Positions 801-34,747 of a stretch of 35,223 nucleotides of DNA are shown piece by piece. Under the pieces are notes generated by a model that had not been told where the DNA came from, did no database searches, and saw nothing but the letters and a program-made list of their open reading frames with translations. Made by a program: the position numbers and the translations under genes. Numbering within the stretch: position 1 is the first letter of the stretch; the number at the start of each line of letters is the position of its first letter. Source of the stretch: a virus; IMG/VR virus record IMGVR_UViG_3300031958_000003, positions 1 to 35,223 of that record; one strand, given 5' to 3'.

Positions 801-1727
801 ATGGCAACCACCCTCAAAGCAGCAGTCACTGGCCAAGCGCCAGCCACTCGTAAACCCGCCAACGACATCGCCGTTTTGCTCTCCGATCCGAAGATCAAGG
901 CGCAGATGCAGATGGCGCTGCCAAAGCACGTCACCGCAGATCGCCTGGCCCGTGTCGCACTGACAGAAGTGCGGAAGAACCCGGCGCTAGCGCGCTGCGA
1001 CCAGACCAGCTTTCTCGGCGCACTCATGACGTGCGCCCAGCTTGGGCTTGAGCCTGGCGGCCCGCTTGGGCATGCCTACCTGGTCCCGTTTGAAAACCGC
1101 AAGGCCAACCGTACTGAGGTGCAGTTCATCGTCGGCTACCGAGGGATGATCGACCTGGCGCGCCGATCAGGCCAGATCGTCAGCATCGAAGCACGCCCGG
1201 TGTACGATGGAGACACCTTCGAAGTGTCGTTCGGTCTCGAGAGCAACCTTCGGCACGTCCCCGACTTCGACAACCCGAACCGGGTTCAGCCGGACAAGCT
1301 GCGGTTCGTCTATGCCGTCGCCAAGCTCAAGGATGGCGGCGTGCAGTTCGACGTGATGAGCCGCCGCGAGGTCGAGGCCGTGCGCGCGCAATCGCGCGCT
1401 GGCACAAGCGGCCCGTGGGTGACGCATTTCGAGGCGATGGCGCTCAAGACCGTGCTGCGCAGGCTGTTCAAGTGGCTGCCTATCAGCGTGGAACTGGCGG
1501 CCGCCATCGAAGCGGATGAGCGCGCTGAGATCGGGTTGCCGCAGGACAACGTGCTGGCTCCAATAACCGTGGATGCTGAGACTGTGGAAATCTTGGCACA
1601 ACCGCCGCAGCCGCAGGCCGAGCAAGAGCAGCCCAAGCAACCCGCAGAGCCAACTGCGCAAGGCACTCCCGCTGCACAGCATGACGATTGGATAGAGGAG
1701 TACGAAGCCGAGGAGGGCGACCAATGA
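801..1727 (+). CDS. recT: RecT single-strand annealing protein
   Basis: This 308-aa protein starts at ATG 801 behind AAGGAG, rather than at the upstream in-frame ATG 741, which lies inside the exonuclease gene. It carries the RecT core: RVALTEVRKNPALARC, then SFLGALMTCAQLGLEPG, then HAYLVPFENRK, then FIVGYRGMIDLARRSG, and a C-terminal HFEAMALKTVLRRLFKWLP helix. RecT coats ssDNA and anneals complementary strands during phage recombination and replication. The last ~55 residues form a Pro/Gln-rich linker ending in a strongly acidic tail (DDWIEEYEAEEGDQ), a plausible protein-docking peptide. The stop overlaps the next gene's start (ATGA), so the two are translationally coupled. Confidence 0.95.
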   Translation: MATTLKAAVTGQAPATRKPANDIAVLLSDPKIKAQMQMALPKHVTADRLARVALTEVRKNPALARCDQTSFLGALMTCAQLGLEPGGPLGHAYLVPFENRKANRTEVQFIVGYRGMIDLARRSGQIVSIEARPVYDGDTFEVSFGLESNLRHVPDFDNPNRVQPDKLRFVYAVAKLKDGGVQFDVMSRREVEAVRAQSRAGTSGPWVTHFEAMALKTVLRRLFKWLPISVELAAAIEADERAEIGLPQDNVLAPITVDAETVEILAQPPQPQAEQEQPKQPAEPTAQGTPAAQHDDWIEEYEAEEGDQ

Positions 1728-2383
1728 GGACCTACAGCATCACCATCACCGGCAAAACCCCGCTGCTGATGCACTACGACAACATCGAGTGGGCCGACTT
1801 CATGGACCGGTGGAAGGCCGACCCGGCGAACAAGAAGGTCAGCAAAGCCGGGGATGATCGCTCACCAGCTTGGCGCTGGCTTGGCAGCGTGTACCACGAC
1901 GGCACGCGGATCGTGATGCCGCAGGAAAACCTCATGCGCTCGATCATGGAGGGCGGAGCGATGGTGCCCGTGCCTGGCGCAAAGATGGGCAAGACCTTCA
2001 AGGCCCAGACGCAAAGCGGCATGATGAGCGTCGAACCGTATTGGCCGCTTACCATCGATGGCCGCGAGATCGCCTGGGCCGACATTGAGCGACTCAAGGA
2101 CGAGCAGGACTTCGAGGCGCACAAGGGAGCCGTGCGCGCGCTTGGGTTTGACCTGCTGGTCAAGCGCGCAAAGATCGGCTCGTCAAAGCACATTCGCGTG
2201 AGACCCGAGTTCCCCGCCGGTTGGCAACTGCACGGGCATATTGCCGTGTGGGACGAGCAGATCACGAAGGACGCGCTTCAGACGATCCTCAACTTTGCCG
2301 GGCAGTACAAGGGGCTTGGCGACTGGCGGCCCGGTGGGCGGACGCCGGGGCCTTTTGGGACGTATGAGGCTAGGGTCGATTGA
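1724..2383 (+). CDS. Phage protein with RAMP/Cas7-like features, coupled to recT
   Basis: This 219-aa protein starts at ATG 1724, which overlaps the recT stop. I do not recognise a characterised family. It begins with a beta strand (YSITITGKTPLLMH), has IVMPQENLMRSIM at about 63-75, and ends with an amphipathic helix followed by a glycine-rich stretch (GLGDWRPGGRTPGPFGTY, about 198-214) and a final strand. That layout, an early strand, a P-x-x-N-x-x-R-S helix and a terminal G-rich loop, is what RAMP-fold proteins (Cas5/Cas6/Cas7) show. The ENLMRSIM segment parallels ENALRSVM in the Csf2 of this same window. The RAMP link is my inference. Position argues for a role in recombination or nucleic acid binding. 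Confidence 0.6.
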   Translation: MRTYSITITGKTPLLMHYDNIEWADFMDRWKADPANKKVSKAGDDRSPAWRWLGSVYHDGTRIVMPQENLMRSIMEGGAMVPVPGAKMGKTFKAQTQSGMMSVEPYWPLTIDGREIAWADIERLKDEQDFEAHKGAVRALGFDLLVKRAKIGSSKHIRVRPEFPAGWQLHGHIAVWDEQITKDALQTILNFAGQYKGLGDWRPGGRTPGPFGTYEARVD

Positions 2384-2404
2384 GTAGGTGTTGAGGTGAG
2401 GCCG

Positions 2405-2479
2405 GGCCAGGCTGGGCATGGCGAGGCGCGGCGCGTCCTGGCCAGGCTTGGCATGGCGAGGCGCGGCAGGGCATGGCAA
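2405..2479. repeat. GGCNN pentamer array 1 (15 units)
   Basis: Fifteen consecutive 5-bp units, all beginning GGC except one (GTCCT at 2435). The array contains a 28-bp direct repeat (2405-2432 and 2440-2467) with a single mismatch, offset by seven units (35 bp). It begins 21 bp after the stop of the preceding gene. Because the period is five, long low-complexity open frames appear here on both strands; they are artefacts. Confidence 0.85.
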
Positions 2480-2492
2480 GGGCTGTTTCCAG

Positions 2493-2512
2493 CGGACAGC
2501 GTAGGCTGTCCG
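2493..2512. other. Perfect hairpin between the two pentamer arrays
   Basis: CGGACAGC (2493-2500) and GCTGTCCG (2505-2512) are exact reverse complements around a 4-base loop. The hairpin sits almost centrally in the 54 bp separating the two GGCNN arrays. No T-run follows, so it does not look like an intrinsic terminator. It could be a protein-binding palindrome or an RNA processing structure in the operon transcript. Confidence 0.7.
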
Positions 2513-2533
2513 GTGCGAATAGCATCGGGGCCG

Positions 2534-2608
2534 GGCGTGGCGTGGCAGGGCCGGGCCGGGCAGGGCCTGGTCGGGCGCGGCAGGGCAGGGCCCGGCGTGG
2601 CAAGGCAA
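2534..2608. repeat. GGCNN pentamer array 2 (15 units)
   Basis: Fifteen consecutive 5-bp units, fourteen starting GGC and one GGT (2569). The array has exactly the length of array 1 but a different unit order. Every unit puts GG at the same phase, so the + strand is strongly G-rich and the - strand C-rich. Confidence 0.85.
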
Positions 2609-2614
2609 GGGCCC

Positions 2615-2654
2615 TTTTGGGCATTTTTGGGCAATTCTGGCGATTTTTGGAGAA
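2615..2654. repeat. Four 10-bp T-tract units upstream of a start codon
   Basis: The units TTTTGGGCAT, TTTTGGGCAA, TTCTGGCGAT and TTTTGGAGAA follow without gaps. T-runs spaced one helical turn apart are the classic pattern of intrinsically curved DNA. The array ends next to the AAGGAG ribosome site (2655-2660) of the gene starting at 2667. Whether it is a promoter element, a curvature element or simple drift cannot be told from sequence. Confidence 0.65.
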
Positions 2655-2666
2655 AAGGAGCGCAAA

Positions 2667-3146
2667 ATGGCACAAAAACACTACTCATGGCAGGACGGCC
2701 TGCCGACTGGGCCGGATGTGACGCTGATTCGCAAGCGCTGGCCTGATCTGAAAGTTGGGCAGCGCATTGAGTATCAGGAAATCGCAGAGCTGCTCGGGAT
2801 CGAGATCGGAACATCTCGCTGGCAGACGGTGACCGACGCATGGCGCAAGCGTGAGCTCGATGGCGGGCGCGTCATCAAGTGCATCCCAGGCAAGGCGTTC
2901 GTCGTTGCTACTGCCGAGCAGATCATCGACGACACCTACTCAACGCTCAAGCACATCTCGCGCGCCGCGCGGCGTCAGCGCATTCACCTTTCAACGGTCA
3001 AGGTGGCGGATGCGCAAACAAAGGCGGTTGTTGATCATCAGGCCCGCTTGATGCACGCGGTCGAGCAAGACGCCAAGGCCAAGCGACAATTGGCGCTGCC
3101 ATCAACGGCGGTTCAGTCGATGCCGAAGATCAACCGGGTGGTGTGA
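2667..3146 (+). CDS. Hypothetical phage protein, possible nucleic-acid-binding adaptor
   Basis: This 159-aa protein starts at ATG 2667 behind a strong AAGGAG. I do not recognise the family. The middle (IEYQEIAELLGIEIGTSRWQ followed by TDAWRKREL) reads like a winged-helix or HTH-type segment, and the C-terminal half is helical, basic and alanine-rich. No signal peptide or membrane segment is present. It lies between the repeat spacer and csf1, ending 3 bp before the csf1 start. It is therefore either the last recombination-module gene or an accessory of the Cas block. Confidence 0.7.
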   Translation: MAQKHYSWQDGLPTGPDVTLIRKRWPDLKVGQRIEYQEIAELLGIEIGTSRWQTVTDAWRKRELDGGRVIKCIPGKAFVVATAEQIIDDTYSTLKHISRAARRQRIHLSTVKVADAQTKAVVDHQARLMHAVEQDAKAKRQLALPSTAVQSMPKINRVV

Positions 3147-3149
3147 TCC

Positions 3150-3962
3150 GTGAGCATTTTGTCCCACACATCGCTCATACACGCAGCGGACGGCCACCCG
3201 GCCCACGGTCTTGAGCGGGAGCCGTCAACCGGTGGCGTGTGTGCCACCTGTGGCGCATCAATCGACGCGGGGGTGCCGATCTCCGCCATTGAGACGCCAA
3301 CCACGTCCAGTCATGCCGATCTTTTTCGCTTCGGCGGGCGGTACGTTTGCGACGCATGCGCATGGCTGTTTGGCGCGGGCAAAGGTAGGCCGGGCAACTT
3401 CGCCGCCACCCCGCAGCGCCTGGAGTACACCGTCATCAGTCTAGAGTCAGTCGTGGAGGACAAACGACCGTGGCTGACCGTGCTTCGCGAGCTGGCCGAG
3501 ATGCCAGCAGACACGCCCGTCACAGGCGTCATGACCACCGATGTCAAGCCTCGCTTGTGGCACCGCTGTCGTCTCGCGACGATAGGACGCTTTGGTCTGT
3601 ACGTGCACGCGCCCGAGTACGACGTGAGCGAGTGGTGCGATTTCGACCTGCGGGCATGCCTGGCCGTGATCGATCTGATGCTCGCGCCCCTGCGCGCGGG
3701 CTTTGCTAAGTCCAGCGTGTACCACGGCCTGCTGCGCGACTACGCGCGCGCCAGCCGCGATCTGCCGCAGGCCATGTCATGGGACGCGGCGCTGGCCCCT
3801 CACCGCCAGCAGCCGCACTTTTTGCCCGCGCTGATCGCCGCGGGTGTCATTAAAGGAGAGAAGACCGATGGCAAATCCACTGCAAGACCTATTGTCCACG
3901 CTCAGCCCGCCGCAGCAGGCGGCGATCCGGCTGATCAAGCTAAGCCTCGACTGTTTCAATAG
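3150..3962 (+). CDS. csf1: Csf1-like large subunit of a type IV-B CRISPR-Cas complex (zinc finger protein)
   Basis: This 270-aa frame starts at GTG 3150, 3 bp after the preceding stop. The N-terminal part has a four-cysteine zinc finger: C31-x2-C34 and C67-x2-C70, with the second pair in RYVCDACAWLF. This is the hallmark of Csf1, the Cas8-like subunit of type IV complexes. The remainder is mixed alpha/beta with no nuclease motif. Assignment rests on this finger plus position directly ahead of cas11-csf2-csf3-cysH, since sequence similarity in the family is weak. Residues 240-270 overlap the start of cas11 in another frame and look like alternate-frame sequence (Ala/Pro/Lys-rich), so the functional core may end near residue 235. 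Confidence 0.75.
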   Translation: MSILSHTSLIHAADGHPAHGLEREPSTGGVCATCGASIDAGVPISAIETPTTSSHADLFRFGGRYVCDACAWLFGAGKGRPGNFAATPQRLEYTVISLESVVEDKRPWLTVLRELAEMPADTPVTGVMTTDVKPRLWHRCRLATIGRFGLYVHAPEYDVSEWCDFDLRACLAVIDLMLAPLRAGFAKSSVYHGLLRDYARASRDLPQAMSWDAALAPHRQQPHFLPALIAAGVIKGEKTDGKSTARPIVHAQPAAAGGDPADQAKPRLFQ

Positions 3963-4320
3963 CGCCGAAGGCACCGGCCTTTTCGCCGGTGTCGAGCGCT
4001 ACAACGTCTTGGCCGGGCGCATCGAAATCTGTGCTGTGCAGGCGGACAGCCTGCCGCGATTCTGGGCGCTGCTGCTGCGCCGCATGCAGTGGCCTGTCCC
4101 GCCGAAGGGGGCGGATGCGGCCATCCTGGAGGCCATCAGTGCGCCCGACGCGCACGAGGTGCTGCGCGTGCTGGCGACCGAGACCGCCAGCGTCATCACC
4201 CTGGCGCGCATGGCGCACGACCAGGACAAGACCGCGCGGCGCGCACTGCGACAAGCCGTCAATCCAGAGACGGACGAAATCGCCGAATTCGGCGACAAAT
4301 CCTTGGAGGGCATCCTATGA
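3868..4320 (+). CDS. cas11: Cas11-like small subunit (type IV-B)
   Basis: The protein is 150 aa from ATG 3868, which has AAAGGAG about 10 bases upstream; an in-frame GTG at 3844 is less well placed. It is almost entirely helical, beginning MANPLQDLLSTLSPPQQAAI, and has no catalytic motif. That fits the small all-helical Cas11 subunits that form the belly filament beside Cas7 in class 1 complexes. The gene overlaps csf1 by 95 bp and its stop overlaps the csf2 ATG (ATGA). The call depends mainly on size, helical content and position between csf1 and csf2; the sequence alone would not identify it. Confidence 0.65.
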   Translation: MANPLQDLLSTLSPPQQAAIRLIKLSLDCFNSAEGTGLFAGVERYNVLAGRIEICAVQADSLPRFWALLLRRMQWPVPPKGADAAILEAISAPDAHEVLRVLATETASVITLARMAHDQDKTARRALRQAVNPETDEIAEFGDKSLEGIL

Positions 4321-5156
4321 AGTACCAAATCCTGCTGCAAGCCGTCACGCCCATCAGCCACGGCGACACCGTGACCGGCGTGGACAACCAGACCAACACC
4401 CGCATCTTCATGCGCCAGGGCATGCTGATCGACGGCAAGCCTGCGCGCGTGCCGTCCGTCTCCGAGAACGCCCTGCGCAGCGTCATGTTTCGCTACCCGC
4501 TGCACGACCACCTGCTGCGAGCTTTGGAGATCGAGCGCGGGCAGCTGCCGCAGTCGGTCGTCAACTTGCTCTTCTCCGGCGGCAGCATGGCAAGTGGCGC
4601 TAAAGCCCCGACCAACGAGATCGAGCTTGGACACAAGGTCAAGCAGCTCTATCCGTCCATCGACCTGCTGGGCGGCGCTGTCGACGCCTTTATCCTGCCG
4701 CGCTCTCGCATGCGCCTGGCGGCGTGGCTGGTGGCGCGCGAATACCTGCCTGCGCTGCGTTTGGTGGCCCCGGAGCTTGCCGACGAGGCCGCCGGTGTGT
4801 CGGCCTACGACATGCTCACGGAGGAGACACGCACGCGCGGCGCCGGCAGCGAGTCAAGCGGCAACCAAATGCTCTACACCTACGAGACGCTCGCTGCCGG
4901 CGCCAAGCTGCTGCTGGAGGTGAGCCTGGACCCACACACGCCGACCGCTACAGCGGCTGCTGTTGCCCATGCGCTGGCCTGCTGGGATGGCTATATCGGC
5001 GGGCAAGGGCGGCAAGGGCGCGGGCGCATGGAGGTTGTGCGCGCCTCTCTTGGTGGCGCAGACGCCTATCTCGCGCATCTCGAGACGCACCGTGACGCAA
5101 TGCGCGACGGGCTGGTGACGGGCAAGCTGGGCACGGAGCGGGTGCTATGCCAGTAG
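4317..5156 (+). CDS. csf2: Csf2, Cas7-family backbone of a type IV-B complex
   Basis: This 279-aa protein starts at ATG 4317 behind GGAGG. It has the RAMP/Cas7 layout: an N-terminal strand (KYQILLQAVTPISHGD), a VPSVSENALRSVMFR helix (about 45-59), a middle insertion with a Gly/Ser-rich stretch (TRGAGSESSGNQML, 173-186) that could be the thumb, and a C-terminal glycine-rich loop (YIGGQGRQGRGR, 226-237). Cas7 proteins polymerise along RNA and form the complex backbone; RNA contacts usually involve the thumb and G-rich regions. The gene overlaps cas11 by 4 bp and csf3 by 10 bp. This is the most secure member of the block. Confidence 0.85.
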   Translation: MKYQILLQAVTPISHGDTVTGVDNQTNTRIFMRQGMLIDGKPARVPSVSENALRSVMFRYPLHDHLLRALEIERGQLPQSVVNLLFSGGSMASGAKAPTNEIELGHKVKQLYPSIDLLGGAVDAFILPRSRMRLAAWLVAREYLPALRLVAPELADEAAGVSAYDMLTEETRTRGAGSESSGNQMLYTYETLAAGAKLLLEVSLDPHTPTATAAAVAHALACWDGYIGGQGRQGRGRMEVVRASLGGADAYLAHLETHRDAMRDGLVTGKLGTERVLCQ

Positions 5157-5884
5157 ATTGGACGCGCATCGGCCCGCTGCCGCAGGTATCGCCGTGGCGG
5201 CACGGGCAGCGAACGCTCACCTGGGAGCAGCGCCGCGACCAATACGCGGCCCTGCCCAAGACCGGGCTGACGATCATCGCAGAGCTCGCGACGCCGGTGA
5301 TCCACGCCGAGCGTGACCGGACGCACCTGGACGGCATCCTGTCGAGCGCGGCCATCACCGACCACCCCGCACCGAGCAAGTGGGACAAGGTGGCCATCGT
5401 CCCGCTGCCGATCGACCTGCTGTGGGTCAGCCCACGCGGCCTGCCGCTATGGGCCTGCACGCCGCTGATGGTGTCAGACGATGCTGTGACCAGCCACGAG
5501 TACTGGCACAAACGCTACCCGACCGACCGGGCCGACTTCGGCGTCAAGCTGAGAGCCAACACATCGTCAGGCCGTTGGCGCGAGTACAGGATGCCGGTGG
5601 CGGCACAGTCTGCATCACGACTTGTGGCAGTCGCCATCGGACACGCGGCAGAGGTGCAGCGCCTGCTCGATGGCATCACGCACATCGGCAAAAAGGGCAG
5701 CATGGGCTATGGCCGCGTACTGCGCTGGTCGGTAGTCGAGACGGCAGGCGTGACGCCCGATGACATCCTGTCACGCCGCCCGGTGCCGGTCGCATCCCGG
5801 CTACGACAGGGCGACCCAGTGCCTGCGCGCGGCTGGACGCCGCCCTACTGGTACGCACCGCACTGGGAGGACTGCGTAGGATGA
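5147..5884 (+). CDS. csf3: Csf3, Cas5-family subunit of a type IV-B complex
   Basis: This 245-aa protein begins at ATG 5147, inside the end of csf2. It has an LTIIAELATPVIH strand (41-53), the H-L-D-G-I-L motif (60-65) typical of Csf3, an SGRWREYRMP segment (141-150), and a C-terminal RAMP glycine-rich loop (IGKKGSMGYGRV, 180-191). Cas5-type subunits cap the 5' end of the guide RNA. The last ~50 residues are Pro/Arg/Trp-rich and follow the RAMP domain. The stop overlaps cysH (ATGA), so expression is coupled. No Cas6 gene is present in the window to process a guide. Confidence 0.85.
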   Translation: MPVDWTRIGPLPQVSPWRHGQRTLTWEQRRDQYAALPKTGLTIIAELATPVIHAERDRTHLDGILSSAAITDHPAPSKWDKVAIVPLPIDLLWVSPRGLPLWACTPLMVSDDAVTSHEYWHKRYPTDRADFGVKLRANTSSGRWREYRMPVAAQSASRLVAVAIGHAAEVQRLLDGITHIGKKGSMGYGRVLRWSVVETAGVTPDDILSRRPVPVASRLRQGDPVPARGWTPPYWYAPHWEDCVG

Positions 5885-6645
5885 CGCCGATGCAGCGCGC
5901 GACCTATCTTGCCCACTGGCGCACCAATGCCATGCAGCGGCGCGTGTCTGAGGCGCGCGCTGTCCTTGAGCGCGCATCCGCCCTTGGGCGCGTGTCGGTC
6001 AGCATGTCGTGGGGCAAGGACAGCGTGGTGGTGGGGCATCTTGCGCTGCAGTGCCTGCCGCCGCCCGTTGCCATGCTGCACATCGCCAGCAGCTACCGGC
6101 TGCCAGGCTTTGAGCGCGTGCAAGCGTACTTTGCTGCACGTGCAAACCTGCACATCATCGAGCCGCGAAGGACCCTGCAAGAGACCATCGAGTGGCTGCG
6201 AGAGGTGGGGCTGCCGCACGAGCGCACGGCGGCACAGCAGCGGGCGGTTGTCAAAGCGATCAAAAAAGACGTTGGCACCGCATGGTGTATCGACCACGGC
6301 TTTGGGGTGCAGGTGATGGGCATCCGGGCGGATGAGAGCAAAGCGCGCCGGGCATTTTTGCGCGCAAAGGGCGCGATCTACGACGCGCACGGTATCAAGT
6401 TTGCCTGCCCGCTTGCCTGGTGGACTGCAAAGGACGTGTGGGCGTATATCGTCGCCCACGACCTGCCGTATCACCCGCTCTACGACTGCGAGACGCACGG
6501 GCATACGCGCGAGACGCTGCGCAATACGGGGTGGCTATCCACAGACGGGGCGGAGCGCGGCCGGATCGTGTGGCTGCGTGAGCACTACCCTGAGCAGTAC
6601 GCGGTGCTGGCGCGTCAATTTGAGCAGGTGAGGGCATATACTTAG
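5881..6645 (+). CDS. cysH: CysH-like PP-loop ATPase associated with type IV-B CRISPR-Cas
   Basis: This 254-aa protein belongs to the PAPS reductase/adenine nucleotide alpha hydrolase family. The ATP-pyrophosphatase loop is SMSWGKDS (41-48), and a second motif, GIRADESKARR (147-157), matches the family. It lacks the C-terminal E-C-G-(I/L)-H segment with the catalytic cysteine of true APS/PAPS reductases, so sulfonucleotide reduction is unlikely. Chemistry through an adenylated or pyrophosphate intermediate (as in DndC or ATP sulfurylase-like proteins) is more plausible. A cysH-like gene next to csf genes is the recognised signature of subtype IV-B. It overlaps csf3 by 4 bp and closes the block. 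Its target is unknown. Confidence 0.88.
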   Translation: MTPMQRATYLAHWRTNAMQRRVSEARAVLERASALGRVSVSMSWGKDSVVVGHLALQCLPPPVAMLHIASSYRLPGFERVQAYFAARANLHIIEPRRTLQETIEWLREVGLPHERTAAQQRAVVKAIKKDVGTAWCIDHGFGVQVMGIRADESKARRAFLRAKGAIYDAHGIKFACPLAWWTAKDVWAYIVAHDLPYHPLYDCETHGHTRETLRNTGWLSTDGAERGRIVWLREHYPEQYAVLARQFEQVRAYT

Positions 6646-33963: not shown

Positions 33964-34747
33964 GTCTGCTCCTTTGCATGCTGATTCGGTTTCGGTTGAC
34001 GTAGGCCACCGGGTCGAACTTCTCCGGCCTGCTGGGCCTGCTGTTGTGTGGCGTGGAAGATGTAGCACGAGCTCGCAGATACCAATCCGCCCTGAAGCCC
34101 TGCCACCCGGCAAGGCAGCAGTGCGCGATGGCGTCATGTAGGCTGATGCCAGCCTTCATTGCTTCGGCGCGGATGCCTGAGAGCACTGTCGGCGTGACGG
34201 GGCCTGCTCGCTTGGCCTTGCGCACTGCAAGCCAGTCGGCGAAGACCTGTTGGTCAACGTCTGGCGGGCATGGCATTTCCTGTCGTTGACGTCGGCGCGG
34301 CGTTGTTGTGCGCTTATTTATTACTGACGGATCTATTGACGGATCTATGGTGGTTTGGGTGACATGGATGTCACCCGTCTGCGACATGGATGTCACCCGT
34401 CTCGCGACATGGATGTCACCCGTGACATCAGTGTCACCCGTGACATCAGTGTCACCCGTCTGCGAGCTTTTCCGCAGTCGGCCGACGTCGATCATGTACT
34501 GCCTGGTCGTCCCAGGTGCGCCGCCATTAGGATTGCCAACGACCGCGATCCAGCCCTCGGCGATGAGCTCATGAAGCACACGCTGCGCCTGCCTAGTAGA
34601 GCATGACAGGCGTTCGGCGAGCCTGGCAATGCTCGGGTGCAGGCTGCCGCCATCATCGTTGGCCCAGTCGCACATGGCGAGCAGGGCGAGCTTCTTACTT
34701 GCCGGGAGTTTTGTGCGCCATGCGTACACCATCAGCTTGATGCTCAT
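33914..34747 (-). CDS. O-like replication initiator with internal origin iterons
   Basis: This 277-aa protein has an N-terminal winged helix (KKLALLAMCDWANDDGGSLH, then IARLAERLSCSTRQAQRVLH), the origin-binding part in O-type initiators. Its linker (about 97-129) is encoded by five DNA repeats that are likely the binding sites themselves. The C-terminal region (VFADWLAVRKAKRAGPVTPT, then GISLHDAIAHCCLAGWQGFR, ADWY) is the type that contacts the P-like protein. The ATG overlaps the Cro-like gene's stop (ATGA). Confidence 0.85.
   Translation of the reverse strand: MSIKLMVYAWRTKLPASKKLALLAMCDWANDDGGSLHPSIARLAERLSCSTRQAQRVLHELIAEGWIAVVGNPNGGAPGTTRQYMIDVGRLRKSSQTGDTDVTGDTDVTGDIHVARRVTSMSQTGDIHVTQTTIDPSIDPSVINKRTTTPRRRQRQEMPCPPDVDQQVFADWLAVRKAKRAGPVTPTVLSGIRAEAMKAGISLHDAIAHCCLAGWQGFRADWYLRARATSSTPHNSRPSRPEKFDPVAYVNRNRISMQRSRHDTDHDIIDITPEHVD
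34308..34358. other. AT-richer segment beside the iterons with a 12-bp tandem repeat
   Basis: Next to the iterons lies the most AT-rich stretch of this gene (starting around GCGCTTATTTATTACTGA). It contains two exact tandem copies of TGACGGATCTAT (34325-34336, 34337-34348). In lambda the DNA unwinding element flanks the O-binding iterons, so this is the candidate unwinding site. The evidence is position and composition only. Confidence 0.55.
34361..34459. repeat. Five origin iterons inside the O-like gene
   Basis: Three copies of GACATGGATGTCACCCGT (34361-34378, 34383-34400, 34406-34423) are followed by two of GACATCAGTGTCACCCGT (34424-34441, 34442-34459). Each contains a GACA-N4-TGTC dyad. 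Successive starts are 22, 23, 18 and 18 bp apart, so the repeats change reading frame within the gene, which shows that DNA rather than protein is conserved. The layout equals the lambda origin inside gene O. Confidence 0.88.

What the first reader, a model, noticed from the sequence alone, without database searches (positions are those of the whole stretch)
2384..2666. Two matched 75-bp GGCNN pentamer arrays around a perfect hairpin
Arrays 2405-2479 and 2534-2608 each have exactly 15 pentamers, 28 or more of the 30 starting GGC, and they flank a hairpin with an 8-bp stem and 4-base loop. The equal length, shared phase and central palindrome look arranged. Possibilities are a recombination or att-like hot spot, an RNA structure that processes the operon message, a G-rich strand that forms G-quadruplexes, or a protein-binding array. 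It lies just upstream of the cas block in a system that otherwise has no repeat array.
Basis: seen in the sequence. Interest (0 to 1): 0.7.

Follow-up and report, generated by a model that had tools for sequence, protein, structure and literature searches.

The report
Two phage VIPR guide-RNA arrays
The two repeat arrays are most probably guide-RNA genes of a VIPR system, a CRISPR-like RNA-guided silencing system described in 2026 that phages appear to use against rival phages, and the protein that reads the guides and its helper are encoded on either side.

Summary
The arrays are real and far beyond chance. They are not a recombination site or a G-quadruplex spacer. They are two vrRNA (guide-RNA) genes of a VIPR system (PMC13142463, preprint, April 2026). 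Three features fit. (1) Each array is a run of GGY+NN pentamers, 17 and 16 units, with fixed GGY and freely varying NN. (2) Two nucleotides after the last unit, each array has a small tail hairpin; it stands at exactly that place in 15 of 16 tails of the clade, with 8 different stems. (3) The genes on either side are the two VIPR proteins: 1724-2383 is a Vipr, a Cas7-like RAMP (profile hit to the solved SUSP1 Vipr, 36pp, E 7.6e-47), and 2667-3146 matches SUSP1 Vap1. The same arrays occur in at least 113 other viral loci, 71 of which encode Vipr, against 0 of 112 bacterial loci with ordinary GGCNN microsatellites. The link to the cas block is not supported: that block is a separate, array-less type IV-B system, and none of ten relatives carries both modules. 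Expression, Vipr binding and targets were not shown; a target search in IMG/VR and 399 genomes found none.

The parts
1724..2383 (+). vipr: Cas7-like RAMP protein, 219 aa (phrog_4652), with the glycine-rich loop GLGDWRPGGRTPGPFG
   Evidence: phrog_4652 E 2.4e-18; profile of 70 homologues hits 36pp SUSP1 Vipr E 7.6e-47; alone E 1.8e-7; AF2 pLDDT 96.2; nearest folds are Cas7/Csm3 RAMPs, Z 11
2395..2479 (+). vrRNA1 guide tract: 17 pentamers GGY+NN (one is GTCCT); NN order GA CG CA TG AT GA GC GC CT CA TT AT GA GC AG AT AA
2480..2523 (+). vrRNA1 3' tail: GG, hairpin GCTG-TTTC-CAGC (2482-2493), then the 8-bp hairpin CGGACAGC-GTAG-GCTGTCCG (2493-2512); an alternative outer stem pairs 2482-2488 with 2517-2523
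2529..2608 (+). vrRNA2 guide tract: 16 pentamers GGY+NN without a break; NN order CG GT GT AG CG CG AG CT CG GC AG AG CC GT AA AA
2609..2622 (+). vrRNA2 3' tail hairpin: GG then GCCC-TTTT-GGGC (2611-2622)
2667..3146 (+). vap1-type accessory gene, 159 aa, predicted DNA-binding
   Evidence: A family HMM started from this protein and L027:518-1057 hits SUSP1 Vap1 E 5.5e-21 and MakoManhole gp77 'DNA binding protein' E 1.4e-23; it follows vipr in all 25 loci where both were called

Best explanation
Positions 1724-3146 are a VIPR system: vipr, two vrRNA genes and a vap1-type gene, carried in the recombination (exonuclease-RecT) region of a phage genome. Each array is inferred to be transcribed as a ~100-nt RNA with a repeat tract and a structured 3' tail. 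By analogy with SUSP1, Vipr subunits would line up along the tract, one per GGYNN unit, holding the GGY bases and presenting the NN bases. The NN pairs would then read double-stranded DNA as NNxNNx... (one skipped base), and the bound complex would block transcription of that locus, probably in a competing phage, prophage or satellite. Vap1 would be a DNA-binding helper. Shown here: the anatomy, the protein homology and fold, the compensatory tail hairpin and the co-occurrence across phages. Inferred from the SUSP1 work: expression, RNA binding, the targeting rule and silencing.
For: Arrays with free NN occur in 113 viral loci found by DNA pattern alone; 71 of these encode Vipr, against 0 of 112 bacterial loci with homogeneous GGCNN microsatellites (Fisher p 5e-29). 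NN shows all 16 dinucleotides and no autocorrelation at lags 1-12, so the arrays are not slippage products. Intergenic arrays lie on the coding strand between co-directional genes (147 ++ against 9 --). A hairpin at exactly +2 is present in 15/16 tails of the clade, with 8 different stems; at any other offset at most 1/16. The window Vipr matches 36pp by profile and alone, and folds as a Cas7-type RAMP. The downstream gene belongs to the Vap1 family. The same array finder recovers vrRNA tracts at the SUSP1 locus. The published definition matches: 9-16 YNNGG repeats, structured 3' tail, vap gene, phage-borne.
Against: No target was found for either vrRNA: none in the window or in 2 Mb of held loci, none in IMG/VR by exact half-guides, none in 399 genomes of one order at up to 3 mismatches. 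vrRNA1 has one broken unit (GTC for GGY) and, counted from GGTGA, one unit more than the published range. No sigma-70-type promoter was found nearby. There are no expression data. About a third of the array loci had no Vipr in the stretch held, many of them short fragments.
Confidence: 0.93

Rival explanations
1. The arrays are an autoregulatory site: Vipr binds GGYNN repeats in its own operon message and controls translation of vap and the genes behind it, with no guide function.
For: Arrays are sense-strand, often just upstream of a start codon, and flank vipr in many loci. TRAP (known from the literature, not tested here) binds triplets with 2-nt spacers in the same 5-nt rhythm.
Against: Free NN, several arrays in tandem per locus and a fixed tail structure fit guides better; in SUSP1 equivalent arrays are discrete ~100-nt RNAs with DNA-targeting activity. 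A dual role is not excluded.
Confidence: 0.04
2. The arrays supply guide RNA to the adjacent array-less type IV-B complex (Csf1, Cas11, Csf2, Csf3, CysH).
For: The block lies directly downstream and co-directional; the natural RNA of type IV-B complexes is unknown (PMC8175902).
Against: Four records with close Csf2 homologues have no GGY array and no Vipr; six Vipr relatives have no Csf2. The arrays have their own cognate protein. Csf2-type backbones are expected to step 6 nt, not 5 (general knowledge).
Confidence: 0.05
3. Ordinary tandem repeat or G-rich spacer (slippage microsatellite, G-quadruplex, recombination hot spot).
For: G-rich; bacterial chromosomes do hold GGCNN microsatellites; array 1 has a partial internal duplication.
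Against: NN is as varied as shuffled order at every lag, whereas the bacterial microsatellites have mostly 1-3 NN types; specific linkage to Vipr.
Confidence: 0.01

Closest known systems
VIPR of Escherichia phage SUSP1 (type II; PMC13142463, PDB 36pp)
   Same: RAMP protein of the same family, GGY/NN pentamer tracts with structured 3' tails, vap1 family gene behind vipr, phage-borne
   Different: Window Vipr is only about 25% identical; SUSP1 tracts are GGT-rich, the window's GGC-rich; the SUSP1 tail is reported as a pseudoknot, the window clade's is a short hairpin at +2; in the window both vrRNA genes lie between vipr and vap, in SUSP1 one lies upstream of vipr and the others downstream of vap
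Class 1 CRISPR-Cas backbone proteins (type VII Cas7, Csm3)
   Same: Fold of the window Vipr (Z about 11)
   Different: No CRISPR array of identical repeats and spacers; 5-nt GGYNN repeats instead
Type IV-B CRISPR-Cas
   Same: Neighbouring block 3150-6645 has csf1, cas11, csf2, csf3, cysH and no CRISPR array
   Different: A separate module, not linked to VIPR in the relatives examined
TRAP (trp RNA-binding attenuation protein) sites
   Same: Triplets spaced by 2 free nucleotides (from the literature)
   Different: TRAP sites are (G/U)AG, not GGY, and carry no tail hairpin

Membership tests
VIPR system | Vipr RAMP protein (RRM core, G-loop) | tested here: met
   36pp match E 7.6e-47 by profile, 1.8e-7 alone; Cas7-type fold
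VIPR system | vrRNA tract of about 9-16 YNNGG (GGY/NN) repeats | tested here: met
   16 GGY units in vrRNA2; 16 GGY of 17 units in vrRNA1
VIPR system | Hypervariable NN between fixed GGY | tested here: met
   All 16 NN present across arrays, no autocorrelation
VIPR system | Structurally conserved 3' tail | tested here: met
   Hairpin at +2 in 15/16 tails of the clade with 8 different stems; the SUSP1-type pseudoknot was not looked for
VIPR system | vap accessory gene beside vipr | tested here: met
   2667-3146 belongs to the family that includes SUSP1 Vap1, HMM E 5.5e-21
VIPR system | vrRNA is transcribed and bound by Vipr | not testable with these tools
   Needs small-RNA sequencing and pull-down
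VIPR system | DNA targets readable as NNxNNx | tested here: inconclusive
   No target in held loci, IMG/VR half-guide scans or 399 genomes of one order; host unknown
CRISPR array of the type IV block | Identical repeats separated by unique spacers | tested here: not met
   Pentamer GGYNN units only
Type IV-B guide source | Arrays travel with csf genes | tested here: not met
   Absent from the four csf2-bearing viral records; no Csf2 in six Vipr relatives
TRAP binding site | (G/U)AG triplets | tested here: not met
   Triplets are GGC/GGT
Known Rfam RNA family | Match to a curated covariance model | tested here: not met
   No Rfam match at the arrays in the window or L127-L129 even at E up to 5

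The most novel reading that the evidence does not exclude
The vrRNAs, or the Vipr RNP, also serve the array-less type IV-B complex encoded directly behind, so that a phage joins a VIPR guide supply to a CRISPR-like effector whose RNA source has been unknown.
Probability: 0.04. Interest if true: 0.9.

Novelty: new member of a known kind. Interest (0 to 1): 0.5.

Why it matters
VIPR was described only in April 2026, in a preprint. Here the arrays alone, found by a DNA pattern, led to the same protein family without using that paper, which is independent support for the pairing of GGY/NN arrays with Vipr and Vap. The clade adds a GGC-rich version with a simple tail hairpin at a fixed place and strong compensatory change, which helps to define vrRNA ends. 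The window also puts a VIPR next to an array-less type IV-B block, where competition or cooperation between two RAMP systems in one phage could be tested.

Tried and rejected
Rfam: nothing at the arrays. Literature for pentamer repeats in phages: nothing useful before VIPR was searched by name. STAXI RNA considered and dropped (a repeated pseudoknot motif, and no Rfam match here). Hairpin test over all arrays from all phages: no excess (27 seen, 36 expected), because tails differ between clades; the signal appears only within the window's clade. A search for relatives of the window's Vap among viral contigs found none at that sensitivity; its family was reached through the array loci instead. 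Target search: the 46 half-guide matches in IMG/VR do not extend into the other half (best 24/34, chance level), and no genome of one order (399 sampled, reached through a Roseateles record) matches at up to 3 mismatches. A sequence search of the same 399 genomes with the window Vipr gave only marginal E-values (1e-4 to 1e-3), not followed up. NN composition fits codon positions 1-2 on both strands slightly better than uniform (KL 0.080 against 0.098), too weak to use. No cultured phage matches Csf2. Errors.

Full report
Observation. The arrays are real. Counted as GGC or GGT plus two free bases, array 1 is 2395-2479 (17 units, one of them GTCCT) and array 2 is 2529-2608 (16 units, none broken). 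A run-score test gives 13 for each against at most 4 in 300 shuffles of the window. They stand only here and only on the + strand. The 8-bp hairpin exists at 2493-2512.

Relatives by protein. Six viral contigs carry a close relative of the upstream protein. All six have GGCNN arrays in the gaps around that gene, of differing lengths (8-15 units), on the coding strand.

Relatives by DNA pattern. In 113 of these loci the NN bases are varied: all 16 dinucleotides occur and there is no autocorrelation at any lag from 1 to 12. In bacterial chromosomes the same kind of pattern instead finds mostly plain microsatellites with one to three NN types. Fixed triplets with free spacers point to selection on the triplets, not to slippage.

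The linked protein. Intergenic arrays lie on the coding strand between co-directional genes (147 ++ against 9 --). Without prior choice, the family that most often flanks them is phrog_4652 (28 of 96 downstream genes, 29 of 96 upstream). The window protein 1724-2383 belongs to it. Iterative HMM searching finds the family in 71 of the 113 viral pattern loci, in 5 of 8 bacterial loci with varied NN, and in 0 of 112 bacterial loci with uniform NN. A second family, represented by window 2667-3146, follows it in 25 of 25 loci where both were called.

Identity. The profile of the first family has one clear hit among solved structures, 36pp, 'SUSP1 Vipr protein', E 7.6e-47; the window protein alone hits it at 1.8e-7. 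The model (pLDDT 96) is a Cas7-type RAMP, nearest to type VII Cas7 and Csm3, Z about 11. The preprint on SUSP1 VIPR (PMC13142463) describes a small RAMP protein, vrRNAs of 9-16 GGY/NN pentamers with a structured 3' tail, a vap gene, and DNA recognition in which NN pairs are read with one skipped base. The SUSP1 locus, fetched as a yardstick, shows the same kind of layout, and its Vap1 matches the second family at E 5.5e-21.

Tails. In the window's clade a 4-bp stem stands exactly two bases after the last unit in 15 of 16 tails, with 8 different stem sequences; at other offsets at most 1 of 16, in shuffles at most 2. The window's two tail hairpins are 2482-2493 and 2611-2622. The minimum-energy fold of this tail is a longer imperfect hairpin that competes with the short one.

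Neighbouring cas block. Genes 3150-6645 match type IV Csf1, Cas11, Csf2 and Csf3 and a CysH-like protein, as in array-less type IV-B systems (PMC8175902). Four viral records with close Csf2 homologues lack GGY arrays and Vipr; six viral records with the closest Vipr lack Csf2. L253 is 95.5% identical in DNA to the window from 3160 to 6641 but not upstream. The two modules move separately, and their contact in the window is a single case.

Targets. Under the one-base-skip rule neither guide matches the window itself or the held loci. Exact half-guides gave 46 stretches in IMG/VR, none of which extends. No genome among 399 of one order matches the full guides at up to 3 mismatches. The host is unknown, so this is uninformative rather than negative.

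Verdict. The finding is a pair of vrRNA genes of a VIPR system: a new member of a very recently described kind. Identity rests on tests made here; activity is inferred from SUSP1.

Noticed in passing
window 3150-6645: A complete type IV-B-like block (csf1, cas11, csf2, csf3, cysH-like) without CRISPR array in a phage record; L253 shares it at 95.5% DNA identity from window 3160 to 6641, with unrelated sequence upstream, so it looks like a mobile cassette.
   Followed up: partly
phages collection: 119 cultured-phage records (mostly Escherichia, Salmonella and Shigella phages including Felixounavirus and SUSP1/SUSP2, also Gordonia phages Trine and MakoManhole) carry a Vipr homologue; those listed with annotation are called hypothetical protein.
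   Followed up: partly
all viral arrays: The first N of each NN is purine-rich (A 36%, G 33%, T 18%, C 13%) at every genome GC content, while the second N is nearly uniform. Unexplained: a structural preference of Vipr or a property of the targets.
   Followed up: partly
window 2405-2474: vrRNA1 contains a near-duplication: NN units 3-8 (CA TG AT GA GC GC) and 10-15 (CA TT AT GA GC AG) share four of six units, so the guide may have grown by internal duplication.
   Followed up: no
L013 6331-7000; L040; L078; L121: Some contigs carry extremely long or many-fold GGYNN arrays (134 units in L013; 11 consecutive arrays in L121), perhaps the overlapping arrays mentioned in the VIPR preprint.
   Followed up: no
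L143, L149, L205, L236, L239: Vipr with NN-varied arrays in bacterial assemblies or MAGs (Fibrobacteres, Patescibacteria, Alphaproteobacteria, Bradyrhizobiaceae, Dokdonella fugitiva), possibly prophages.
   Followed up: no
window 34361-34459: Near-perfect direct repeats (22-bp and 18-bp units, 2.6-2.8 copies, 97-100% matches) in the right end of the record.
   Followed up: no
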